A stretch of DNA of 37,118 nt, from positions 1 to 37,118 of the forward strand of contig CAIXDX010000261.1 in assembly GCA_903918335.1 (NCBI GenBank), in the 5' to 3' direction. The DNA comes from an uncultured Methylococcaceae bacterium. GTDB lineage: Bacteria > Pseudomonadota > Gammaproteobacteria > Methylococcales > Methylomonadaceae. This document shows positions 10,152 through 26,833 of this stretch, in pieces. A model generated the notes under the pieces. It searched no databases and had not been told where the DNA came from. It was given only the letters and a program-made list of their open reading frames with translations. Positions within the stretch are counted from its first letter, which is position 1, and each line of letters begins with the position of its first letter. Position numbers and translations under genes: made by a program.

Positions 10152-12311
10152 ATGAATAACGAAATCAGCCCTAAAACTGCTGGCCATGACCAACTTAAAA
10201 AACTTAGAACCGCTTTAGCTATTTCGCAAGCCATAAAACTTTCTTCAACCCTACAACAAGAAACTGAGGGGACTGTTTCACACGATCAAACTAAAAGAGT
10301 CACCTACTTAACTGAATTATTCTCTCGTATTCATCGGGAAATATTTAAAGACTGGAAAGATCAAGCAACCGTAAATCATCGACCAGGATCTATGCAGGAT
10401 CATGATAAACGCAAAGAGTTTCGTGAAGCTATTGAAAGCTTAGTATTAGAAACAGATCATAACACCGAAACCGCTATTTTCGACAATAACGGCTTTGTCA
10501 TTAGCACACCTAACATCGCCGAACGTCTAGGTGTCTTTTATAAAAAAATGCGTGCTATTAGACCATTTTCTTATGGCAATCGAATCACACTCGATTTCTT
10601 CATGACCTTATTATGTAAATTACCTGCTATGAAAAGTGTCTATGAGCATGGCATTGATTTTAGACGCATCAACAATATCGATGCTGTGGCTTTACATAAT
10701 CAAAACAGCCAACTAAGAGAAATCACTACCGCATTTGAAAATGCCCTTAACCCTAACCTTTGCAAAAACTTAATCAACCAGGCTAATGCCTATGGAATAT
10801 GGCCGGAAAATAAACAATTTATCCATGGGATTCCTTTTTTATCACACAGAACAACAGACGGCGTTCTTTGTTTAGTTGCTATTAATGGTGGCCTAGTCCC
10901 CATGAGTCGTATTGATTATTATCTATCATTAGCTGGCAAACATTTAGCGGATTATCCACTTTGCGAGACAAAAAACATGCTGGGTTATTTACCTGGCACC
11001 GAGTCAATTCGACAGGATGGACCCTACGAAATTGACGGAATCAGTATAGGCAATGACGGTGCAGCACCGCTCTTCTGCTTGGATATTAATATTCTTACCG
11101 GTTTACGCTCACCAGCTCATACCGAAGTCTTACAATTACTTAAGCAATGTGAAGGCGATCATGCTGTCATATTTGATTTAGTCAATAATGAGAGACTCAA
11201 AAGCCGTATGTTATCAGTCTCAGAAGATGACACTCGATTAATGCGCGCTGTTGAAATTGCTTATGAACGTCTTAATAAAATTATTAATAAACTTAATGCG
11301 GCAAAAGATTCAGTATTTGAAGGTAAACTTCCAGTTCATCACCCTAAACTAATCATGTCAATGGGAGGTGCAGGTGTTGGTAAATCGGGGGTTGAAGCAA
11401 CCGCACGTGCACTTTGTGATGATAATTTTGTGATCGCATCTTTAGATGAATTTAGAAAAGAAAGTGATCTGTATAAGGTACTAACTGCCGCCAACCATCA
11501 TAGTGATGATTACGTTTATGTTGAACCTTTTGCCAACAAACTTAGAGACTCCGTCGCACATCATGCTCGCGCCCATCATTACAACATATTATATGATGGC
11601 ACGGGCATTCCCTATCAACCCAGATACTCCACAATCATTAGTAAATTCAAAGCCAGTGGATTTTATACGCAAGTCACTGCAGTTGATGCATTTCTTATTA
11701 AACCCGTAGGTAGAGACGATGAACTAATACGTTCTAATGTTATCAGTAGTGTTAAAGCACGATTCGAAAAATCTGGTAGAGCTTTGCCATGGGTAGTGAC
11801 TATAGACAAACATATTAGAGCCCCAAGATCTTTCTTAAACGCCCTAGAAGATGAGGGCTTAGATAAAATTTCCTTGTTTGCAAATGATAGTGAAAAACAA
11901 AAAAATTACCTAGTAGCAGAAAGCTTCTCCTTAACTGAAGCAGAGGTTAAAGCGCTGCAACAACATCAATTAGCGGGCAATTTATGTGAACATCTGAAAA
12001 CTTACATAATTCATCATTCAGACTCCCATTTAAAAAACTTTGCTGATAATGATCCAACTAAACTTGATGATTTAATCTCCAGAATTCCTAATTTCAATGA
12101 ATCCAATGTGGCTTATCAAATCTATCAACGCAATAACTATAACCGTGTGCTATTGATTTATTGCGCTAAAAGAATGGTGGACTTTATGGAAAAAAGGCAA
12201 TTAAATCCAAATGCTTCAGGAGAAGAAGGCTTATTACATAAACCCGAAGTGCTTTCATTTCATGTTAACCCTCATGCGCAAGATCCTTGGCTAACTAAAC
12301 TACAAAATTAA
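10152..12311 (+). CDS. large two-domain protein: Fic-like N-terminal domain (degenerate motif) plus zeta-toxin-like P-loop kinase domain
   Basis: Walker A MGGAGVGKSG, SLDEFRK, ILYDGTG of zeta-toxin-like kinases; N-terminal IHREIFKDW...IRPFSYGNR resembles Fic HPFxxGNxR without His. Start moved to the internal ATG at 10152 (MNNEISPK). Confidence 0.75.
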   Translation: MNNEISPKTAGHDQLKKLRTALAISQAIKLSSTLQQETEGTVSHDQTKRVTYLTELFSRIHREIFKDWKDQATVNHRPGSMQDHDKRKEFREAIESLVLETDHNTETAIFDNNGFVISTPNIAERLGVFYKKMRAIRPFSYGNRITLDFFMTLLCKLPAMKSVYEHGIDFRRINNIDAVALHNQNSQLREITTAFENALNPNLCKNLINQANAYGIWPENKQFIHGIPFLSHRTTDGVLCLVAINGGLVPMSRIDYYLSLAGKHLADYPLCETKNMLGYLPGTESIRQDGPYEIDGISIGNDGAAPLFCLDINILTGLRSPAHTEVLQLLKQCEGDHAVIFDLVNNERLKSRMLSVSEDDTRLMRAVEIAYERLNKIINKLNAAKDSVFEGKLPVHHPKLIMSMGGAGVGKSGVEATARALCDDNFVIASLDEFRKESDLYKVLTAANHHSDDYVYVEPFANKLRDSVAHHARAHHYNILYDGTGIPYQPRYSTIISKFKASGFYTQVTAVDAFLIKPVGRDDELIRSNVISSVKARFEKSGRALPWVVTIDKHIRAPRSFLNALEDEGLDKISLFANDSEKQKNYLVAESFSLTEAEVKALQQHQLAGNLCEHLKTYIIHHSDSHLKNFADNDPTKLDDLISRIPNFNESNVAYQIYQRNNYNRVLLIYCAKRMVDFMEKRQLNPNASGEEGLLHKPEVLSFHVNPHAQDPWLTKLQN

Positions 12312-12324
12312 GCACATAAAAAAA

Positions 12325-12344
12325 GGCGGTTAAAACTAACCGCC
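12325..12344 (-). terminator. rho-independent terminator downstream of slyD
   Basis: GGCGGTTA-AAAC-TAACCGCC, 8-bp perfect stem, followed on the minus strand by a T7 tract. Confidence 0.8.
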
Positions 12345-14636: not shown

Positions 14637-16121
14637 ATGCACAACAAAATTTTTTCATCGTTCTATTTTATACCACTACATTTGCTACTATCTGCCTGTA
14701 CTTCTGGTGGATTATTCACAACAGTCGGCCCCGATTACAGCCCTAATAAACCGCCCACGCCTAATCAGTGGTACAGTTCACAGCCAGAATTTACACCACA
14801 AGTATTGGCGCACAATGGTAATAAAAATACACTCATTCATTGGTGGAACCGTTTTCAAGACCCTGTTCTAATTCAACTATTAAATGCTGCAGAAAAAGTA
14901 AACCCCACTCTTACAGATGCCAAAGCTCGTATAGAAGAAGCGAGAGCCAATGTGGTAACTGCCGATGGAGCCGTATTGCCGACTTTGGATTTTTCTCAAG
15001 GTCTTAAGCGCTCTTCCTCTTCATTCGGTGGCACACCATTCATCTGGAACCAATTTTCAGCGGGAGTACAATCCAGTTGGGAAATTGATTTATTCGGGGG
15101 TTTAGCTCGTCAACAAGAAGCAGCGCGCAGTCAATTAGATTCCAAAAACGCAGCCTGGCATGATGCTAGGGTAGCTGTTGCAGTAGAAGTCGCCGACGCT
15201 TACCTCGCCTATCGATTTTCTGAGGCTCAAAAACAAATATTACAAGCGGATACCGCCTCAAGAGTTGAATCCGCCCGTTTAACAGCCATCGCAACTGAAC
15301 AAGGTTTCCACTCTCAAGGAGAAGTTGCTCTAGCTAAAGCGAGTGCAGCTGAAGGCAACAAATCAGTATTGCAACAAGCGTCCCAAAGTGAGCGTGCCAT
15401 AAAAAGCCTAGTATCTATGACGGCAATAGAAGAACCAGAACTACGTAAACTATTGAATGGTGCTCCTGATCAAATTGCAAAACTACCTAGTCCACCCTCA
15501 TTTAATATAGATACTTTACCTGCCAAGGTGTTACTACAACGGCCCGATGTTGCAGTAGCAGAGCGAGATGTTGCAGAAGCCAGTGCTAATATCGGCGTAC
15601 AAAGAGCAAAACAGTTTCCAAAACTGAGTTTATCTGGAACGATAACTCCAACTCTACAAAATATAAATGGCGGTGCACTATTACTTGCACAAACATGGTC
15701 GATTGGACCCACACTTAGTTTACCTCTGTTTGACTCTGGCAAACGCGCCGCCGATGTTGAGAATGCAAAGGCGAAATATCTAGCTGCTTCGACTCGATTC
15801 AATAGTAAAGTCAGAACCGCTGTTAAAGAAGTTGAAGATGCGTTAGTCCGATTAAATAGTGTGCGTAAAATCTTACCCGAAGCTCATCTTGCTGTAGATG
15901 GATACACTACTAATTTTTTAGCAAATCAGACCCTGTACCAAAATGGTTTAGGTAACTTGCTAAATGTTGAAGTAGCGAGGCGCAATATGCTATCTGCTGA
16001 ATTAGCGCTAAAGGAACTTGAAAGAGAACAAGTTAGTGCTTGGATTGCACTATATCGTGCTGCTGGAGGTGGCTGGTGGGAAGATCAAATTAATGAAACG
16101 AGCAATGGAGCAAAATTATGA
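14637..16121 (+). CDS. efflux transporter outer-membrane subunit (NodT/OprM-type lipoprotein)
   Basis: Lipobox LLSACTSGG, VGPDYSPNKPP...WW.RFQDPVL, IGVQRAKQFPKLSLSG. Confidence 0.92.
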   Translation: MHNKIFSSFYFIPLHLLLSACTSGGLFTTVGPDYSPNKPPTPNQWYSSQPEFTPQVLAHNGNKNTLIHWWNRFQDPVLIQLLNAAEKVNPTLTDAKARIEEARANVVTADGAVLPTLDFSQGLKRSSSSFGGTPFIWNQFSAGVQSSWEIDLFGGLARQQEAARSQLDSKNAAWHDARVAVAVEVADAYLAYRFSEAQKQILQADTASRVESARLTAIATEQGFHSQGEVALAKASAAEGNKSVLQQASQSERAIKSLVSMTAIEEPELRKLLNGAPDQIAKLPSPPSFNIDTLPAKVLLQRPDVAVAERDVAEASANIGVQRAKQFPKLSLSGTITPTLQNINGGALLLAQTWSIGPTLSLPLFDSGKRAADVENAKAKYLAASTRFNSKVRTAVKEVEDALVRLNSVRKILPEAHLAVDGYTTNFLANQTLYQNGLGNLLNVEVARRNMLSAELALKELEREQVSAWIALYRAAGGGWWEDQINETSNGAKL

Positions 16122-17230
16122 CCAAACGGAATTCAGGCATTCTAGTCTTAGCCTTAGTATTAATCATAGGTATTACAATGATTATTAGTCATAGAAATAA
16201 ACCCAGCTCATCCGCGATTAAATCGACAGAGAATCCATCACTCAGCGTATCTCTGATCCAACCAGAAACCACTAATATTCCAATCACTCTGACAACTAAC
16301 GGCTCTATAGCTGCCTGGCAAGAAGCCATTATTGGCGCTGAAATAGGCGAATTACGTCTTAATGAAGTGAATGCTCAAATAGGAGAAAAGGTAAAAAAAG
16401 GTCAAGTGTTAGCTTCGTTTTCAACGGAAAGTGTTTTAATCGACATTGCCCATAGTCGAGCCGCTTTACTGGAAGCTGAAGCTAATCAAAGTGACGCTAA
16501 AATTAATGCTGAGCGAGCCAATAAAGTATCTATTTCAGGAGCCTTGAGTTCTCAGCAAGTCGATCAATATAAAACCCTCTATAAAACGGCTAATGCAAAA
16601 GTTGAATTAGCAAAAGCCCAGCTTAATGCCCAATTACTACGCTTGAAATATACACAAGTTTTAGCCAGTGATGACGGTGTTATCTCTTCAAGTAACGCCA
16701 CATTAGGTGCAGTAGCGACTAAAGGCCAAGAACTATTTCGTTTAATTCGTCAAAACCGCCTTGAATGGCGAGGTGAAGTGACTGCTGAAGAAATCACCCA
16801 ACTTAAACCGGGCATTAAGGTTACTGTAAAAGTACCTAATGTTGGCAATGTTGAAGGATCAATTCGCTTTCTTGCTCCAACTTTAAATATACAAAATCGT
16901 AATGGCCTAGTGTATGTTGACCTGCCTAATGCAACAGCTAATGGCTTACGTGCAGGCATGTTTGGACGTGGCGAATTTCATATAGATTATTCTAAGGGTC
17001 TAACAATTCCTCAAGAAGCGATTTCAATGCGTGACGGTTTTAGTTACGTATTCATCTTAACGAATCAAACTAAAGACCGTGGCTATGTTAAACAAGTAAA
17101 AGTGCAATTAGGTCGCAAATTCGATAACAAACTAGAAATATTATCAGGAATTACAACCAATGATTATCTAGTAGCCAGTGGAGCCGCATTTCTAACTGAT
17201 GGCGATAACGTGAGAATAATTACTCAATGA
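16118..17230 (+). CDS. efflux RND transporter periplasmic adaptor subunit
   Basis: MFP/HlyD: GSIAAWQEAIIGAEIGELRLNEVNAQIGEKVKKGQVLA; ATGA overlaps with both neighbours. Confidence 0.92.
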   Translation: MTKRNSGILVLALVLIIGITMIISHRNKPSSSAIKSTENPSLSVSLIQPETTNIPITLTTNGSIAAWQEAIIGAEIGELRLNEVNAQIGEKVKKGQVLASFSTESVLIDIAHSRAALLEAEANQSDAKINAERANKVSISGALSSQQVDQYKTLYKTANAKVELAKAQLNAQLLRLKYTQVLASDDGVISSSNATLGAVATKGQELFRLIRQNRLEWRGEVTAEEITQLKPGIKVTVKVPNVGNVEGSIRFLAPTLNIQNRNGLVYVDLPNATANGLRAGMFGRGEFHIDYSKGLTIPQEAISMRDGFSYVFILTNQTKDRGYVKQVKVQLGRKFDNKLEILSGITTNDYLVASGAAFLTDGDNVRIITQ

Positions 17231-20200
17231 ACATCTCAGCCTGGTGTATACGCAACCCCATTCCAGCCGTTATGCTGTTCATCATGCTCAGTTTTGGTGG
17301 ATTAATTAGTTTCAAGGCGATGAAAGTTCAAAACTTTCCAGATCTTGACCTACCAACCATTACCGTCACCGCTTCTTTGCCTGGTGCCTCACCATCACAA
17401 TTAGAAACAGAAGTAACTCGAAAAATAGAAAATGCTATTGCCACCCTGCAAGGCTTAAAACACATTAGCTCGAAAGTACAAGACGGAAATGTCACGATTA
17501 TTAGCGAATTTCGCTTAGAAAAACCTGTGCAAGAGGCTTTAGACGATGTTCGATCTGCCGTATCAAAAGTGCGTGCAGATTTACCGAGTGATTTACGCGA
17601 TCCTATCGTCACCAAACTTGATTTAGCCTCTTCACCCATATTAGCTATCACCGTTAAATCAGATCATAGAGATGAAGAAGCACTCTCATGGTTTGTTGAA
17701 GATGTTATCACTAAAAAATTGTTAACAGTTCGCGGTGTAGGTGCGGTTAATCGTGTAGGTGGTGTTACCCGTGAAATCACTATTGCACTTGACCCTATTA
17801 AACTCCAAGCACTAGGTGCAACAGCAACTGATATTTCTCGCCAACTCCGCGTAATCCAACGTGAGAGTGCTGGTGGCAGGATGAATTTAGGATTAGGGGA
17901 ACAACCTATACGCACCTTAGCAAACGTCAGTTCCATTGCTGAAATACGCACAATGCAAATCTCATTAAGCGATGGACGCCATATTCAACTTGATCAAATT
18001 GCCAAAATTGATGACTCCGTCACTGAGCCACGCGCTTTAGCTCTATTAAACGGGACTCCCGTGGTTGGCTTTGAGGTAACACGAAGTAGAGGTGCCAGTG
18101 AAATTGAAGTCGGTGCGGGTGTTCAAAAAGCCCTACAAGAATTACGCGATGCAAACCCTGATATTGAACTTACCGAAGCTTTTAACTTTGTAACACCTGT
18201 TAAAGAGGAGTTTCAAGGATCCATGACGATGCTTTACGAAGGTGCTCTCCTCGCCACATTAGTTGTCTGGCTCTTTTTAAGAGATTGGCGAGCCACATTT
18301 ATTTCAGCAATTGCCCTTCCACTTTCTGTTATTCCTGCCTTTATTGGGATGGATTATTTCGGATTTTCACTCAATGTCATCACTTTATTAGCACTGTCTT
18401 TGGTTATTGGAATATTAGTTGATGATGCAATTGTTGAAGTAGAGAATATCGTCCGGCATTTAAGGATGGGTAAAACACCTATACAAGCAGCTAAAGAGGC
18501 CGCTGATGAAATTGGCCTAGCTGTCATAGCAACCACGCTTTCATTAGTTGCTGTATTTCTTCCTACTGCATTTATGAGTGGTATTGCAGGCAGATTTTTT
18601 AAACAATTTGGCTGGACAGCGGCATTAGCAGTTTTAACATCTTTAGTCGTTGCCAGAATGCTAACCCCGATGATGGCAGCTTATATGTTAAAGCCACATA
18701 AACATGGAGCAGCCAAGGAAGGATTCATCATGCAAATCTACATTAAATATGCAACGTGGTGTCTACATCATAGGCTACGAACGATGTGCGGTGCTGCTAC
18801 TTTTTTTATAGGCTCCCTCCTTCTAATTCCACTATTGCCCACTGGTTTTATCCCCCCAGATGACAATCCACAAACACAAGTCTTTATTGAGCTTCCCCCT
18901 GGTTCAAGTTTAGCGCAAACAAAAGCAAGTGCAGAGGCCGCTAGAAAGTTAGTATCAAAAATCAATTACGTAAATAGCATTTATACGACGATCGGCAGTG
19001 GTTCCGCAGGCAGTGACCCAATGGCTAACACACAAGGTACTGGCGAAGTTCGCAAAGCCACGTTAACAATCACTCTTGCCGATCGCCAAGATAGACCCAT
19101 TCGTAAACAAGTTATCGAGCAAGATATTCGACTAGCACTCCAAAAATTACCGGGGGTTAGAACAAAAGTGGGACTTGGAGCGTCAGGCGAAAAATATGTA
19201 TTAGTTCTGAGTGGTGAGGATTCACAAGCTTTATTAAGTGCTGCACGAAAATTAGAACTTGATTTAAGAACAATTCCAGGTTTAGGCAGCATTGCCTCTA
19301 GTGCTGCACTGGTGCGACCCGAGATTTCTGTTAAACCCGACTTTGTACGTGCTGCTGATTTAGGCGTAACAACAACTTCACTGGCAGACACACTTCGAAT
19401 TGCCACTTTAGGTGATTATGATTGGTCTTTATCAAAACTAGATTTAGCCCAACGTCAAGTGCCTATCGTAGTAAAACTAGCTGAAGACAGCCGGCACGAT
19501 TTAAGCGTATTAGAGAGACTCGCCGTTCCCAGTTCAAAATCAAGCCTCGGCTCAGTTATGGTGGGTCAAGTAGCAAAGATCGAACTATCAAGCGGACCAG
19601 CTGTCATTGATCGATATGATCGATCTCGGAATATAAATTTTGAGATCGAACTTTCGGGGACTCCATTGGGTGAAGTTACCACTGCGGTTGAGAATCTACC
19701 TAGTATTAAAAACTTACCCACCGGTGTAAAACGCATTAACATTGGTGATGCTGAAATGATGGGAGAACTGTTTGCCAATTTCGGTCTTGCTATGTTAACG
19801 GGCCTATTATGTATCTTTATCGTACTTATTTTACTTTTTAAAGACTTTATTCAACCTATCACTATTTTAGCGGCATTACCGCTTTCTTTTGGTGGTGGCT
19901 TTATTGCATTGCTAATAACTGGTAAGGCATTCTCTATGCCGTCTTTAATCGGTTTAATTATGTTAATGGGAATTACCACAAAGAACTCTATTCTCTTGGT
20001 AGAGTATGCAATAGTTGCTAGACGAGAACTTGGCATGAGCAGACTCGAAGCGCTTTTAGATGCTTGTCACAAACGAGCCAGACCTATAGTAATGACTACT
20101 ATAGCCATGGGAGCTGGCATGCTACCTATTGCAATGGGTATGGGTAACGCAGACTCATCTTTCCGTAGCCCAATGGCAGTTGCCGTTATTGGTGGCTTAG

Positions 20201-20316
20201 TCACCTCCACTTTGCTAAGCCTATTAGTCATACCCGTCGCTTATACCTATCTGGATGATTTTAAAACATGGTTTATTACCCATTGGAAACGTAGCAGTGA
20301 AAATTTTATCCATTAA
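17227..20316 (+). CDS. efflux RND transporter permease (HAE1-like)
   Basis: 1029 aa; MKVQNFPDLDLPTITVTASLPGASPSQLE; ILVDDAIVEVENIVRHL. Confidence 0.95.
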   Translation: MNISAWCIRNPIPAVMLFIMLSFGGLISFKAMKVQNFPDLDLPTITVTASLPGASPSQLETEVTRKIENAIATLQGLKHISSKVQDGNVTIISEFRLEKPVQEALDDVRSAVSKVRADLPSDLRDPIVTKLDLASSPILAITVKSDHRDEEALSWFVEDVITKKLLTVRGVGAVNRVGGVTREITIALDPIKLQALGATATDISRQLRVIQRESAGGRMNLGLGEQPIRTLANVSSIAEIRTMQISLSDGRHIQLDQIAKIDDSVTEPRALALLNGTPVVGFEVTRSRGASEIEVGAGVQKALQELRDANPDIELTEAFNFVTPVKEEFQGSMTMLYEGALLATLVVWLFLRDWRATFISAIALPLSVIPAFIGMDYFGFSLNVITLLALSLVIGILVDDAIVEVENIVRHLRMGKTPIQAAKEAADEIGLAVIATTLSLVAVFLPTAFMSGIAGRFFKQFGWTAALAVLTSLVVARMLTPMMAAYMLKPHKHGAAKEGFIMQIYIKYATWCLHHRLRTMCGAATFFIGSLLLIPLLPTGFIPPDDNPQTQVFIELPPGSSLAQTKASAEAARKLVSKINYVNSIYTTIGSGSAGSDPMANTQGTGEVRKATLTITLADRQDRPIRKQVIEQDIRLALQKLPGVRTKVGLGASGEKYVLVLSGEDSQALLSAARKLELDLRTIPGLGSIASSAALVRPEISVKPDFVRAADLGVTTTSLADTLRIATLGDYDWSLSKLDLAQRQVPIVVKLAEDSRHDLSVLERLAVPSSKSSLGSVMVGQVAKIELSSGPAVIDRYDRSRNINFEIELSGTPLGEVTTAVENLPSIKNLPTGVKRINIGDAEMMGELFANFGLAMLTGLLCIFIVLILLFKDFIQPITILAALPLSFGGGFIALLITGKAFSMPSLIGLIMLMGITTKNSILLVEYAIVARRELGMSRLEALLDACHKRARPIVMTTIAMGAGMLPIAMGMGNADSSFRSPMAVAVIGGLVTSTLLSLLVIPVAYTYLDDFKTWFITHWKRSSENFIH

Positions 20317-20323
20317 TCCCACC

Positions 20324-21349
20324 ATGCTAACGATACTTAATAAAATCAAGATTTCAATTGTACTGTTGCTCAGTTTCAATTTATATACTTTTTCAACTGC
20401 TTCCGCCAACACTGTATTTTCGGCGACCCAAAACTGTGTCGCCACTCCTTCGATCCATAAACTAGATAATCCAGGCGCGGTCAAATTAGAAGTTGGTGAC
20501 CATTATCCGATACTCCAAGGAAATAAACCGACCCATCCAGAATGGTATCTGTTACGTATTGAAACAGCTAATCCACCTATAAGATGGGTAAGAAATGATT
20601 GTGGTAACGTGAGTAGTTCAGATATCGAGATAAATACAGACAACAATAAAACCTGTAACATTGCAAATCAAGCAGATAGTTATGTCTTTGCCGTCAGTTG
20701 GCAACCCGCTTTCTGTGAAAGTAAACCGGAGAAACCTGAATGTGCAACCACTGATGCATCAGCCTATCAGGCTAGTCAATTTAGCCTCCACGGTTTATGG
20801 CCCAATAAAGAAAGTTGTGGAATCGATTACGGTTATTGCGGTGATGTGAAAGCAAAACCGGCGAATTTCTGCGATTACCCTCAGGTCAACATGAGTAGCA
20901 TTATCCGTAATCAGTTGAGCCAAGTGATGCCTAGTGTGAGTTCTAGTTCTTGTTTAGAGCGGCATGAATGGCACAAACATGGCACTTGTCAAAGTGACCT
21001 TCCCGACCAATACTTTGAAAAAGCAAGTAACTTAGTACATCAATTTAACGAAAGTGGAATCAGTGATTTCATGAAAAGTCATATCAATCGAAAAATAAGT
21101 CTTGATGACTTTCGTACTGTTCTTGATTCAAGTCTTGGTTCGGGTGCCAGCACACATGTTAAGCTCGGATGCAAGAATGGTTTATTAGTTGATATTTACG
21201 TGAGTTTGCCTGCCGAAATTAAACCAGATGCCAAGCTTAAAGATTTGATATTTAGGGCACCACCCATGCCAACAGACAAAAGTTGCCAGAGTGGTTTTCG
21301 TATTGATGCCATTGGGCAGGATTTTTTCAATAAACGAACAATTTTCTAA
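20324..21349 (+). CDS. ribonuclease T2 family protein, secreted, with extra N-terminal domain
   Basis: CAS-I FSLHGLWP and CAS-II HEWHKHGTC; signal peptide; ATG at 20324 gives MLTILNKIKISIVLLLSFN. Confidence 0.92.
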   Translation: MLTILNKIKISIVLLLSFNLYTFSTASANTVFSATQNCVATPSIHKLDNPGAVKLEVGDHYPILQGNKPTHPEWYLLRIETANPPIRWVRNDCGNVSSSDIEINTDNNKTCNIANQADSYVFAVSWQPAFCESKPEKPECATTDASAYQASQFSLHGLWPNKESCGIDYGYCGDVKAKPANFCDYPQVNMSSIIRNQLSQVMPSVSSSSCLERHEWHKHGTCQSDLPDQYFEKASNLVHQFNESGISDFMKSHINRKISLDDFRTVLDSSLGSGASTHVKLGCKNGLLVDIYVSLPAEIKPDAKLKDLIFRAPPMPTDKSCQSGFRIDAIGQDFFNKRTIF

Positions 21350-24300
21350 AGCTCTTCTAACTTATATCGATCCTGCTTATCAAACTGCTGTAACAAACAT
21401 GGCAACAACACCAACACCAACGGTATTTGTATCAGTAATCCAAAGATCAACGCAATGGCCAGTGGTTGCAACATCTCGGCTCCAGTCCCTATACCCAACG
21501 CTAATGGCAATAAAGCAAATATAGCCGCAATAGTGGTCATTGCAATAGGACGCATTCGGTTATTACCGGCTTTACTAAATCCTGCGATACCTTGTTTATC
21601 AATTACAGGTAGATTCTCGTACTCTGAATAATAAAATACCGCAACTTCTGTAACAATACCTATCACCATGGTCATGCCCATTATAGCCATAATATTCAAT
21701 TCAGTATGAGTTAACCATAAGCCTATAAACACCGCAGGGATCGATGTTAACGTTGTTGTGATAATAGCTGTAGCCACCCTAAAAGACTCATACACCATCA
21801 ACAAAAGTAAATAGACTAAGGCCACAGCGGCCATAAAAACCACCAACATATCTTTAAAAGCAATCTGTTGTTCTGCGTACAACCCACCTAACTCATAGTA
21901 GATTGAAGAAGGTAACATATTAGTTTGATGCAGAGTCTTTTCAATAGCTACTATCGCAGAACCTAAATCACGTCCTTCTAAGCGAGCAGTGACTGCCACC
22001 ATACGTTTTAAATTCTCTCGATGAATTTGCGGTTGCCCAATTTCAGTGGTTATCTGCGCAACTCGCTCTAAAGGTACCCATTGACCTGATATAGTACGAA
22101 TAGGCAAATTTTTCAATTGAGCACCATTTGTTCGCTCTGCCTCAGGAACCCACACCCGCACATTTAGCATTTTAATGCCTTCTTGTACCTGAGTTGGAGT
22201 AATACCAGTTAAATAGGCATTGATCGCCTGTTTAATCTCATCACCACTTAACCCTGCCAAAGCCGCTTTATCAGGTATTATACGAATAGTATAAGCATCC
22301 CCAGCCGGAATCACACCCGAATTAATATCTACAACACCGTCTATTTTACCGATAGCCTCAGCAATTTTTTCTGCCGTTATAATGAGTAATTCACCTTTAT
22401 CTGCATACAATTTAATTTCAATCGGCTGCGGTACTGCGGTTAAATCACCAATCATATCAGCCATCAATTTAGCCATTTCTACCTCAAGTCCAGGCACATG
22501 CTTTGTGACTTGATCACGAATATCGATCATAATTTCATCGAGGTTTCGCCGCGGTAATGGCTTTAATTTTACAAAAAAGTCGCCTTCATTAGCCTCAGTA
22601 ATATGCCCCCCCAAACTTAAACCAGTCCGACGAGAATAGGTTGCTACTTCAGGTGTTTGTTGAATAATTTCTTCAACTTGCTGGAGTAAGCGATCAGTCT
22701 CTGTGACTGACGTACCCGCCTCAGCTCGATAATCAAGAATAAAACCCCCCTCATCCATAGCAGGCATAAAGCCAGAACCAATCGATTGTTCAGCAATAAA
22801 GCCACCTGAAAGCAATACCACAATTGCACCTAATACCCAGCAAGGTCGAGGCAGTACCTGTTGCATTAACCGCCTATAAACCTCATGAATCCATTGCGTT
22901 AATTTAGAACGTTGCTCTGATGTTTGAACTGATTTTGATAAGGTTTGCGCAGCTAACAAAGGTACTGCTAACCAAGCAACTAAAAAGGATAAGGTTAAAA
23001 CTGACGCAATCGTTAAGGATAAGGCTTTAAAAAAACTACCACTCACCCCTGATAGAAAAGCCAATGGGATGTGAGTCACAATAGTAGCCGCAGAAGAAGC
23101 CGCCAGCGGCTTACTAAACTCAGCCGCAGCGGTTTGAATACGCTCACGGAAAGGCGCATTGCCCTCTTGAAGTCTCCGCATAATATGCTCAATCATCACG
23201 ATAGCATCATCAATAATTAAAGCCACAGCAGCCGCCATACCACCCAAAGTCATAATATTAAAACTTTGCCCCATCAGCGACAGAATTAAGGTCGTTGCAG
23301 CCAAGGCTAACGGTACAGTTAATGCCGTAATTACCGTCACCCAGCCGTTACGTAAAAACACCCATAAAACCAGCACGGCTAAAACCAGACCAATTAACAA
23401 AGCCTCTCGCACAGTTGATGCTGAAGCAATAATCAATTCACTTTGGTCATACCATTTCGCTAAATGAACATCTTGTGGAATGCGAGCAGCTAATAATTTC
23501 AATTTCTGTTCTACAACAGAAACAATATCAACCGTACTCCCTTCCGGTTGTTGAATAATTTGAAACAAAACGGCCTCTTTACCATCCGCTCTAACCCGTT
23601 GCCATTGAGGTGCTGTTGTCTTAATAATCGTTGCAACATTTTTTAATAATACCAATCCATTAGCATCATGTCTTAAAACGGTTAAACCAATATCCTGAGT
23701 ATTTTTTAGCTGTTGCTCAGCTAACAATAAATACAATTTATAGTGTTCTTCCAAGCGACCAACCGCTTGCAAAACATTACTCGCTGCTAATGTTTTAGCG
23801 ACTTCATCCAACGTTAAATTATAGGCTCTTAATTTACCGGTATTTATCAATACTTGATATTCAGCCGTCGCCCCGCCTAACACTTCGACTTTAGCGACAC
23901 CAGGTATCGTTGATAACAAAGGCACAATCTGATAATCAGCAATATCTCTAAGTGCAACTGCTGTCTGTTTACTGGCAGTTAAACTATAGCCCAGCACCGG
24001 AAACACGGTGGGCTCCATTCTGCGAACTGTAAAATTAAGCGCAAGCGGTAACTTGGAACGAATCTGATTAACTGCGGCATCCACTTGCAACATGGCAGAC
24101 ACCATATCAACTCCCCAAACAAAGTTAATTGAAATATCGGTACTGCCACGTGTAGTTGTTGATCTAACATTCAATACGCCCGGCACTGCTCTAACCGCTT
24201 CTTCAACAGGGACGGTTGCTTCCAAAACCATACGTTCTGCGGGTTTATCACCCGCATCCATATTAATAACAATACGCGGAAAAATAACTTGCGGAAATAG

Positions 24301-24399
24301 GCTCACTGGCAAAGACTGCGTCAAATAGAGTCCTGAGAACGCCAATAAAAGAAGAGTTAATATGATTGATCGGCGGTGACTAAATGCCCATGAGGTCAT
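21346..24399 (-). CDS. efflux RND transporter permease (second system)
   Basis: 1017 aa; SLPVSLFPQVIFPRIVINMDAGDKPAERM; LIIDDAIVMIEHIMRRL. Confidence 0.93.
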   Translation of the reverse strand: MTSWAFSHRRSIILTLLLLAFSGLYLTQSLPVSLFPQVIFPRIVINMDAGDKPAERMVLEATVPVEEAVRAVPGVLNVRSTTTRGSTDISINFVWGVDMVSAMLQVDAAVNQIRSKLPLALNFTVRRMEPTVFPVLGYSLTASKQTAVALRDIADYQIVPLLSTIPGVAKVEVLGGATAEYQVLINTGKLRAYNLTLDEVAKTLAASNVLQAVGRLEEHYKLYLLLAEQQLKNTQDIGLTVLRHDANGLVLLKNVATIIKTTAPQWQRVRADGKEAVLFQIIQQPEGSTVDIVSVVEQKLKLLAARIPQDVHLAKWYDQSELIIASASTVREALLIGLVLAVLVLWVFLRNGWVTVITALTVPLALAATTLILSLMGQSFNIMTLGGMAAAVALIIDDAIVMIEHIMRRLQEGNAPFRERIQTAAAEFSKPLAASSAATIVTHIPLAFLSGVSGSFFKALSLTIASVLTLSFLVAWLAVPLLAAQTLSKSVQTSEQRSKLTQWIHEVYRRLMQQVLPRPCWVLGAIVVLLSGGFIAEQSIGSGFMPAMDEGGFILDYRAEAGTSVTETDRLLQQVEEIIQQTPEVATYSRRTGLSLGGHITEANEGDFFVKLKPLPRRNLDEIMIDIRDQVTKHVPGLEVEMAKLMADMIGDLTAVPQPIEIKLYADKGELLIITAEKIAEAIGKIDGVVDINSGVIPAGDAYTIRIIPDKAALAGLSGDEIKQAINAYLTGITPTQVQEGIKMLNVRVWVPEAERTNGAQLKNLPIRTISGQWVPLERVAQITTEIGQPQIHRENLKRMVAVTARLEGRDLGSAIVAIEKTLHQTNMLPSSIYYELGGLYAEQQIAFKDMLVVFMAAVALVYLLLLMVYESFRVATAIITTTLTSIPAVFIGLWLTHTELNIMAIMGMTMVIGIVTEVAVFYYSEYENLPVIDKQGIAGFSKAGNNRMRPIAMTTIAAIFALLPLALGIGTGAEMLQPLAIALIFGLLIQIPLVLVLLPCLLQQFDKQDRYKLEEL

Positions 24400-25454
24400 G
24401 GTTTTTCAACCTCGATATCCATACCATCAGTTAACTCGTAATTACCTAAAATGACCAACTCATCTTCTACCTTCAAGGTTGGATCAATCAATTCGACCGA
24501 TGTATCGGTTTCTATGCCAATATCTACCCTATGTTTAACTGCTTTTTTATCAACAACGGTAAAGACACTATATTTATCATCATCCGGTAATACCGCTTCT
24601 CTGGGCGACACTAAAGTATGTTTAGTTGCTATGGTAATGCACCCTTCTATCGATTCATTCAATAAAAAACTAGCTTCATTGGAGGGCTTAACAACTACGC
24701 TAACTAAATGACTCACAGGATCAACTTGTTGAGAAATAGACTCAATAACTCCACTGACAGACTGCTCAAGTTTCCGATTAGTTGGTATTAGTTCAACACG
24801 TTGCAGTTTTCTTAAGGCACCTATTTGACTTGCTTCAACACCCAATTCAATGCGCCATTGCGTTTGTTCAGACCATTGCAATAGTGGACTTCCAGAAGCT
24901 AATTGTTGTTCTTGTTGGACTTTAACAGAGACAATAACACTGGGTTTATCAGCCTTTAAGGTCCGACTTTTTAATGAGCCTCGGGCCGTTAAATCCGCAA
25001 GTAGCGCCTTAGCTTGATCAACCCGTAATTGACTAGTCACTAATTCATGCTCTGTAGCTAACTTCAACTGAAATCGACCTTGTAGCAAATTCAATTCTTT
25101 TGTTGCAGCCGCCAATTCTTGCTGAGCTTGTTTCACACTTAGCAAAGCATCTTCACTAGGTTCCACTACCAACAAAGGCTCACCCGCCTGCACTGCTTCG
25201 CCACTACTCACGAAAACTTTCACAATACGACTGGCATAAGGCACGCTGAGACTTTTTAAACTATTTGGCAAAGCTATTACAGATCCATAAGCTGTTATAG
25301 TCTCTACGATATCTGTTAACTCTAAGGGTTGGGTCTGGACCTTAACACTAGAGGTCACGTCAGCCTCTTCTTCACTATGCTCTGCAGAACAAGCCATCAA
25401 TATCAACAAGCTCATTAGCAACAGGCTCTTCAAGAATCTATATTTCATAAACAT
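24396..25454 (-). CDS. efflux RND transporter periplasmic adaptor (lipoprotein)
   Basis: Lipobox LMACS; ITAYGSVIALPNSLKSLSVPYASRIVKVFVSSGEAVQAGEPLL. Confidence 0.9.
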   Translation of the reverse strand: MFMKYRFLKSLLLMSLLILMACSAEHSEEEADVTSSVKVQTQPLELTDIVETITAYGSVIALPNSLKSLSVPYASRIVKVFVSSGEAVQAGEPLLVVEPSEDALLSVKQAQQELAAATKELNLLQGRFQLKLATEHELVTSQLRVDQAKALLADLTARGSLKSRTLKADKPSVIVSVKVQQEQQLASGSPLLQWSEQTQWRIELGVEASQIGALRKLQRVELIPTNRKLEQSVSGVIESISQQVDPVSHLVSVVVKPSNEASFLLNESIEGCITIATKHTLVSPREAVLPDDDKYSVFTVVDKKAVKHRVDIGIETDTSVELIDPTLKVEDELVILGNYELTDGMDIEVEKP

Positions 25455-25465
25455 ATACGTAAAAA

Positions 25466-26833
25466 TTATAAAACATACCGACCTGTCGTAGTTTCCAAAG
25501 CGACTTGCGCTTCGATTAAATGCAGTTGCAAGGTTAAAACTTCAACCTGTTTATCAATCAAATGGTTCCAAGCAGCATAATAGGTAGGTTGGTCAATTTG
25601 TCCTTCCCAATTAGAAGTCGTATAAGCATTAAATAAACTAGCTAATTGATTCAAGCCCGCACGTGCCGTTTTAATTTCTGCATTAATTGAGATGATAGTC
25701 GTCAGCAACTCGGCCACATCGGCTTTGCTTTGAAAATCACGATTGCTATATTCATCAAATAACTGTTGCCGACTTGCGGTTGCTATAGCAATTGCACCTT
25801 GGTTTTGATCAAATAGTGGCAAACTTAAAGCAGCCCCAGCACCCACAGTATAGTAATTACTGTTATTTCTAGTCTGCGTTAATCCAAGACTAATTTTTGG
25901 AAATTGTTGCAATATAGCGATACGGACTTGTTCTTCTTGGGCAAGATACCCTTGTTTTAAGGCTAATAAATCTAAACGATGTGAGGTTAAATCGGTAGTG
26001 AGTTGTGCAAAACTTGGGGGTAGCAATTCAATTGGTAAATACGACTTTTGATAAGTAATTTTTAGACCGGACGTCTGACCTAAAACTCTGTTGAGCCGTT
26101 CTTGTTGATGCTGCTTTTGTAGTAATAAAACTTGCATCCGACCTTCTAGGGCTTCAACAGAACTCATTGCGGTAGAGTTTTCTAAAACTGTTGCCCAACC
26201 CTGATCAAACGCCTTTTGAATTTGTTCCTTATTACTTTCTAACCGTTTTAAACTCTCAGATAAAAGCGCGTATTGCTGATCATAAATTTGTAATTGATAA
26301 CAGGCTAATTTCGCTGCTTGTGCAATTTGCCATTCTTGCCATGCTATCTGTAAATTAATAGCTTGTTGTTCTGCCTTTGCGGCTGAAACCTTATTAGAGC
26401 GAGTTAATAAGGCTGTAAACTCCCAGTCTAAACTAACACCATAACCTTGAACTTTACCTTGATCTACCCCCCCTGTAACTGTTGCATAATTATAGGCTAT
26501 GCGTGGATTAGGTAATAAGCCAGCTTGTAACAATTGTGCATCGGCAACGCCTTGTTTTGACCTCGCAGCGCGTAATTCTGGATTTTGAATTATCGCTATA
26601 ATGGCGGCCTCATCCGGTGATAAACCATCTGATAATTCGAAAATTACCGGCTTTAATAATGGATGTTTAATCTGACTCGCTAAAATTTGAAGTTGCGCAA
26701 ATGATAGGGTAGCATTTTGCTTATGGATAGATTGTTCAGTCAACGCCTTTGGTTGATAATTAGAACAGGCCGTTAACGTTAGCAGAAATAATAATAAAAT
26801 ATTTTCAATATTGAAACTTAACCTCATAACCAC
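25466..26833 (-). CDS. TolC family outer-membrane protein (CzcC-like)
   Basis: LSPDEAAIIAIIQNPELRAARSKQGVADAQLLQAGLLPNPR, lipobox LTACS. Confidence 0.9.
   Translation of the reverse strand: MVMRLSFNIENILLLFLLTLTACSNYQPKALTEQSIHKQNATLSFAQLQILASQIKHPLLKPVIFELSDGLSPDEAAIIAIIQNPELRAARSKQGVADAQLLQAGLLPNPRIAYNYATVTGGVDQGKVQGYGVSLDWEFTALLTRSNKVSAAKAEQQAINLQIAWQEWQIAQAAKLACYQLQIYDQQYALLSESLKRLESNKEQIQKAFDQGWATVLENSTAMSSVEALEGRMQVLLLQKQHQQERLNRVLGQTSGLKITYQKSYLPIELLPPSFAQLTTDLTSHRLDLLALKQGYLAQEEQVRIAILQQFPKISLGLTQTRNNSNYYTVGAGAALSLPLFDQNQGAIAIATASRQQLFDEYSNRDFQSKADVAELLTTIISINAEIKTARAGLNQLASLFNAYTTSNWEGQIDQPTYYAAWNHLIDKQVEVLTLQLHLIEAQVALETTTGRYVL

What the first reader, a model, noticed from the sequence alone, without database searches (positions are those of the whole stretch)
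10152..12311. Fic-like domain fused to a zeta-toxin-like kinase, with no antitoxin nearby
Seen: the C-terminal half carries MGGAGVGKSG (11361-11390), SLDEFRK and ILYDGTG, as in zeta-toxin-like P-loop kinases. The N-terminal half reads IHREIFKDW...STPNIAERL...IRPFSYGNRITLDFF...LLCKLP, which lines up with the Fic fold. Knowledge: Fic proteins transfer AMP or other groups; zeta toxins phosphorylate UDP-sugars or related substrates. Inference: one polypeptide may couple two nucleotide-dependent activities, and its solitary position between glyQ and slyD argues against a classical epsilon-zeta module. It could be a secreted effector or a housekeeping regulator.
Basis: partly seen in the sequence, partly recalled or inferred. 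Interest (0 to 1): 0.8.

Follow-up and report, generated by a model that had tools for sequence, protein, structure and literature searches.

The report
Degenerate Fic domain fused to zeta-like kinase
A chromosomal protein found, in our searches, only in methane-eating bacteria joins a Fic-type domain that has lost its usual catalytic residue to a kinase resembling zeta toxins, so it probably carries its own built-in control instead of a separate antitoxin.

Summary
The C-terminal half is a zeta-toxin/PezT-like P-loop kinase. Its Walker-A Lys (K411), the Asp aligned with zeta D67 (D432) and two arginines (R537, R543) are invariant in 61 homologues. The N-terminal half (about residues 26-202) is a remote relative of E. 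coli-type Fic. This rests on a PADLOC Fic profile (E 4e-4 for the window protein itself), a profile-profile P of 3.5e-5 against a shuffle control, and weaker NCBIfam and Pfam hits. The Fic active site is lost in every homologue: HPFx[D/E]GN[G/K]R reads [RK]PFxYGN[RK]. An ordinary AMP transferase is therefore unlikely.

The gene is single copy, 58-87% identical over full length, present in 74 of 151 sampled Methylococcales. No relative with this architecture was found in the sampled class, phylum, plasmids or phages. Neighbours vary and no antitoxin accompanies it. Best reading: a self-regulated zeta-like kinase with a pseudo-Fic domain in cis, working like E. coli EzeT with a different regulator. 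Substrate and role are inferred. New variant of a known kind.

The parts
10152..12311 (+). CDS of the fused protein, 719 aa
   Evidence: full-length homologues 58-87% identical in Methylococcales; low dN/dS, dS near saturation
10227..10757 (+). Fic-like domain, about residues 26-202
   Evidence: PADLOC PDC-S04 E 4.4e-4 (26-198); hhalign to E. coli-type Fic P 3.5e-5 over 59-202; NCBIfam PRK10347 in 7/29 members, best 0.0016; Pfam Fic in 7/29, best 0.004
10560..10583 (+). Degenerate fido motif R137-P-F-S-Y-G-N-R144, in place of HPFx[D/E]GN[G/K]R
   Evidence: Position 137 R53/K8, 141 Y59/F2, G142 and N143 invariant in 61 homologues
10758..11306 (+). Middle region, residues 203-385, conserved, no recognised family
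   Evidence: No family better than E 0.3
11331..11873 (+). Zeta-toxin-like P-loop kinase domain, residues 394-574
   Evidence: Pfam PF06414 E 3.3e-12, 4.7e-19 with the family consensus; NCBIfam PezT in 29/29 members
11361..11390 (+). Walker A MGGAGVGKSG (K411 aligns with zeta K46)
   Evidence: K411 invariant 61/61; ungapped alignment to 1gvn
11439..11459 (+). SLDEFRK, D432 aligns with zeta D67
   Evidence: Invariant 61/61; alignment, offset 365
11874..12308 (+). C-terminal tail, residues 575-719, with the highly conserved block KRQLNPNASGEEGLLHKPE (681-699)
   Evidence: 92% mean conservation at 681-700; no family match
12325..12344 (+). Terminator-like hairpin after the stop codon (pattern match only)
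   Evidence: number of such sites no higher than in shuffles

Best explanation
It is a chromosomal, solitary, multidomain zeta-like kinase. The kinase half has the conserved residues of a working zeta/PezT kinase (shown by alignment) and most likely uses ATP to phosphorylate a UDP-sugar or a similar nucleotide (inferred from the family). The N-terminal half is a Fic-derived domain whose catalytic motif is missing in all 61 homologues examined (shown), so it is unlikely to AMPylate. It probably acts in cis as a nucleotide- or protein-sensing regulator that restrains or triggers the kinase (inferred). It would thus do the job of an epsilon antitoxin within one polypeptide, as the antitoxin domain does in E. 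coli EzeT. Purifying selection and single copy suggest a native regulatory or stress role in these methanotrophs rather than an addiction module.
For: Zeta. Catalytic-type residues invariant. Fic origin: score 39.2; best of 100 column shuffles 23.6; E. coli Fic 5jff and Bep 4py3 among only 3 weak PDB hits. Active site lost in all. No antitoxin and no fixed neighbour. Conserved single copy over the order. Purifying selection in every segment. EzeT precedent of a cis antitoxin domain fused to a zeta kinase: PMC4826407.
Against: No structure: both predictions failed. The R537/R543 equivalence to the zeta arginines is outside the PDB alignments. The position aligned with zeta E100 (D466) is not conserved. 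The middle region and tail (about 330 aa) are unexplained and could be the true regulator or carry another activity. Nothing shows that the kinase is active, toxic or inhibited by its N-terminus.
Confidence: 0.5

Rival explanations
1. A housekeeping metabolite kinase of zeta-like ancestry, constitutively active on a non-UNAG substrate, with the Fic-like half serving only as a scaffold or dimerisation unit and no toxin-like restraint.
For: Long, mostly vertical-looking retention and single copy; no antitoxin; PF06414 spans diverse P-loop proteins; the E100-equivalent position is not conserved.
Against: Absent from about half of the order, including many near-complete genomes, so not essential; closest solved matches are the toxins zeta and PezT only.
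Confidence: 0.3
2. Two active enzymes in one chain: the Fic-like half still transfers a nucleotide or phosphate group with non-canonical residues.
For: The Fic-like half contains some of the most conserved stretches (0.94 at residues 41-60); AvrB shows that a fido fold can bind nucleotide without the canonical motif (PMC2686095).
Against: His to Arg/Lys and [D/E] to Tyr/Phe in all 61 homologues, with one loop residue fewer.
Confidence: 0.1
3. A secreted effector aimed at other cells or eukaryotes, using Fic and zeta domains as warheads.
For: Both domain types occur in known effectors (general knowledge; PMC2686095 for Fic).
Against: No recognised linked secretion or immunity genes and variable neighbours; purifying selection and single copy; no N-terminal signal seen in the sequence.
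Confidence: 0.05

Closest known systems
Zeta toxin / PezT (PF06414; 1gvn, 2p5t)
   Same: P-loop kinase core with Walker A Lys, D67-equivalent Asp, and the EGT-like motif (YDGTG); significant PDB sequence matches
   Different: Four-part 719-aa chain, no separate epsilon/PezA antitoxin gene; E100 position not conserved; activity untested
EzeT of E. coli (PMC4826407)
   Same: Single-chain chromosomal zeta-like kinase with an extra N-terminal domain and no separate antitoxin
   Different: Here the N-terminal part is large and Fic-derived, followed by a further middle region and tail; homology of the N-terminal parts was not tested
E. coli Fic (NF007672/PRK10347; PADLOC PDC-S04; 5jff)
   Same: Remote homology over most of the domain, including IHRxxFxD, the ERLAxFY helix and the PFxxGN loop
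   Different: Catalytic His replaced by Arg/Lys; acidic residue replaced by Tyr; one loop residue shorter; fused to a kinase
AvrB (fido superfamily, PMC2686095)
   Same: Precedent for a fido fold that lost the HPF motif
   Different: Plant-targeted effector, no kinase fusion; no direct sequence link shown here

Membership tests
Zeta toxin / PezT kinase family | Significant profile match over the kinase core | tested here: met
   PF06414 E 3.3e-12, consensus 4.7e-19; NCBIfam PezT in 29/29 but far below its equivalog cut-off; 1gvn E 3.6e-7
Zeta toxin / PezT kinase family | Walker A Lys (K46) and catalytic Asp (D67) | tested here: met
   K411 and D432 align at a constant offset and are invariant in 61/61
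Zeta toxin / PezT kinase family | Two active-site arginines (R158, R171 in zeta) | tested here: inconclusive
   R537 and R543 invariant but beyond the region aligned to 1gvn/2p5t
Zeta toxin / PezT kinase family | UDP-sugar kinase activity and toxicity | not testable with these tools
   Needs enzyme and growth assays
Epsilon-zeta / PezAT toxin-antitoxin module | Antitoxin gene next to the toxin | tested here: not met
   No ORF of 90 aa or more conserved beside the gene in 20 genomes; no plausible small ORF in the 170-bp upstream gap of the window
Fic / fido superfamily | Homology by sequence profile | tested here: met
   PADLOC PDC-S04 4.4e-4, hhalign P 3.5e-5 with shuffle control; Pfam below its gathering cut-off
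Fic / fido superfamily | Fic fold (helical bundle with beta-hairpin flap) | tested here: inconclusive
   AlphaFold pLDDT 35.4 and 40.7; fold search meaningless
Active Fic AMP transferases | HPFx[D/E]GN[G/K]R with catalytic His | tested here: not met
   [RK]PFx[YF]GN[RKQ] with few exceptions; no His in 61/61
EzeT-like self-regulated zeta kinases | Zeta kinase with an extra N-terminal domain on one chain, no separate antitoxin | tested here: met
EzeT-like self-regulated zeta kinases | N-terminal domain quenches the kinase in cis | not testable with these tools
   Needs truncation assays

The most novel reading that the evidence does not exclude
The Fic-like half is not dead: with Arg in place of His it binds a nucleotide or catalyses a non-AMPylation transfer that switches the attached zeta-like kinase, giving a one-protein nucleotide-sensing circuit peculiar to methanotrophic Methylococcales.
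Probability: 0.12. Interest if true: 0.75.

Novelty: new variant of a known kind. Interest (0 to 1): 0.48.

Why it matters
If right, two toxin-type domains have been combined into a stably inherited self-contained regulator, showing that Fic folds can be reused as non-catalytic control modules for zeta kinases. It gives a testable case of toxin domestication, possibly linked to cell-wall precursor control, in an environmentally important group of methane oxidisers. No paper describing this fusion was found in the held library.

Tried and rejected
AlphaFold on full length and on residues 36-212: only 4 close homologues came from permitted sources, and both models were unusable; Foldseek on the second gave no match below E 2.5. 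A first Fic profile made from 25 Methylococcales Fic proteins (HPFxDGN[G/K]R) gave nothing convincing above shuffles; the link appeared only against the E. coli Fic subfamily, which was chosen after the NCBIfam hit, so that P value is not from a single blind test. The PADLOC hit with the window protein is independent of that choice. PHROGs and a PDB profile search with the N-half gave no Fic match. Viral contigs and phages gave no relatives; plasmids gave only ordinary zeta toxins over the kinase region. A link to methane oxidation was checked: 69 of 74 gene-positive genomes were not in the list lacking a PF02461 (particulate methane monooxygenase) match, but 9 match-less genomes went unlisted and 122 of 151 genomes in the order have one, so presence is not explained by methanotrophy alone. 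The background count of the PFxxGN motif was started but its script failed and was not repeated.

Full report
What is there. It is not a chance ORF: full-length homologues with 58-87% identity occur in 74 of 151 sampled Methylococcales genomes, one copy each, and dN/dS estimates are well below 1 in every segment (mostly 0.03-0.1), although synonymous sites are near saturation so the values are rough.

The kinase half. Residues 394-574 match Zeta_toxin (PF06414) at E 3.3e-12; all 29 tested members match and the family consensus reaches 4.7e-19. This family model alone is not specific: it also rings on FtsY in this genome. The more specific evidence is that the only significant solved-structure matches are the zeta toxin 1gvn and PezT 2p5t, and that in the alignment to 1gvn a constant offset of 365 places K411 on zeta K46 and D432 on D67. 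Both are invariant in 61 homologues, as are T484, R491, R537 and R543. The naming of zeta K46, D67, E100, R158 and R171 as active-site residues is my own knowledge. The E100 position is not conserved (D466: D21/G4/S4 of 29).

The N-terminal half. Pfam Fic is only sub-threshold (E 0.57 for the window protein, 7 of 29 members, best 0.004). NCBIfam gives the E. coli-type Fic model PRK10347 in 7 of 29 members, best 0.0016. PADLOC's PDC-S04 hits the window protein at 4.4e-4 over 26-198, and that model is the E. coli Fic family (E. coli Fic scores 3.9e-75). Profile-profile alignment of 61 homologues with 11 E. coli-type Fic sequences gives P 3.5e-5, score 39.2 over 126 columns; the best of 100 column-shuffled controls reached 23.6, and the middle, C-terminal and reversed segments 16.0, 13.9 and 22.6. 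The phmmer search of the consensus against PDB sequences gave three non-significant hits, two of them Fic proteins aligned through the same loop. I take Fic ancestry as about 80-85% likely.

The active site is gone. Fic enzymes carry HPFx[D/E]GN[G/K]R, with the His needed for AMPylation (PMC2686095). Here the loop reads [RK]PFx[YF]GN[RKQ], apart from rare exceptions at P138 and F139: His is replaced by Arg (53) or Lys (8), the acidic residue by Tyr (59) or Phe (2), and the loop is one residue shorter. G142 and N143 are invariant, so the loop is conserved but not as a canonical transferase.

Surroundings. In the window and its closest relatives the gene sits between glyQ and slyD, but among 20 genomes spread over the order no neighbour is constantly present. 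The upstream gap of 170 bp has no plausible antitoxin ORF. So there is neither a classical epsilon-zeta module nor a conserved operon.

Distribution. Searches of 369 and 321 genomes of the class (samples that probably overlap) and 398 of the phylum with the N-half profile found no full-length relative outside the order; one class genome has a kinase-region match only. The gene tree groups nearly all f4 sequences, with one f4 sequence (L092) among f1, which suggests mostly vertical inheritance with losses and perhaps a transfer (FastTree, midpoint root, supports not examined). Both the genome collection and the sampling are incomplete, so absence elsewhere is provisional.

How it most likely works. 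The published precedent is EzeT, where a zeta-like UDP-GlcNAc kinase is restrained by an antitoxin domain on the same chain (PMC4826407). The present protein has the same logic on paper (kinase with conserved catalytic-type residues, no separate antitoxin, an extra N-terminal domain), with a pseudo-Fic domain in the regulatory position. Shown: composition, conservation, loss of the Fic motif, lack of partner gene. Inferred: kinase activity, UDP-sugar-type substrate, cis regulation, and the native role.

Verdict. Its proposal of two coupled activities is probably wrong for the Fic half, and the effector idea has no support. It is a new variant of a known kind, of moderate interest.

Noticed in passing
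G000 contig C269 / L130:1207-3144 (-): A 645-aa ORF whose N-terminal half looks like a multi-pass membrane protein (COX15/CtaA-like by eye) runs into an FtsY-like SRP GTPase; it could be a membrane-anchored FtsY fusion. It also shows that PF06414 rings on FtsY.
   Followed up: no
window 11874-12308: The C-terminal tail has a nearly invariant block KRQLNPNASGEEGLLHKPE with no family match, more conserved than much of the protein.
   Followed up: partly
window 10758-11306: A middle region of about 180 aa (e.g. PLFCLDIN.LTGLRSP) is conserved across the order and matches no family in Pfam or NCBIfam.
   Followed up: partly
L092 (G459, family f4): Its gene copy groups with f1 sequences rather than other f4 sequences, a possible transfer within the order.
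   Followed up: no
window 14637-26827: Two neighbouring efflux-type gene sets (outer-membrane lipoprotein, membrane fusion protein and RND-like pump) in opposite orientations, by eye from the translations.
   Followed up: no
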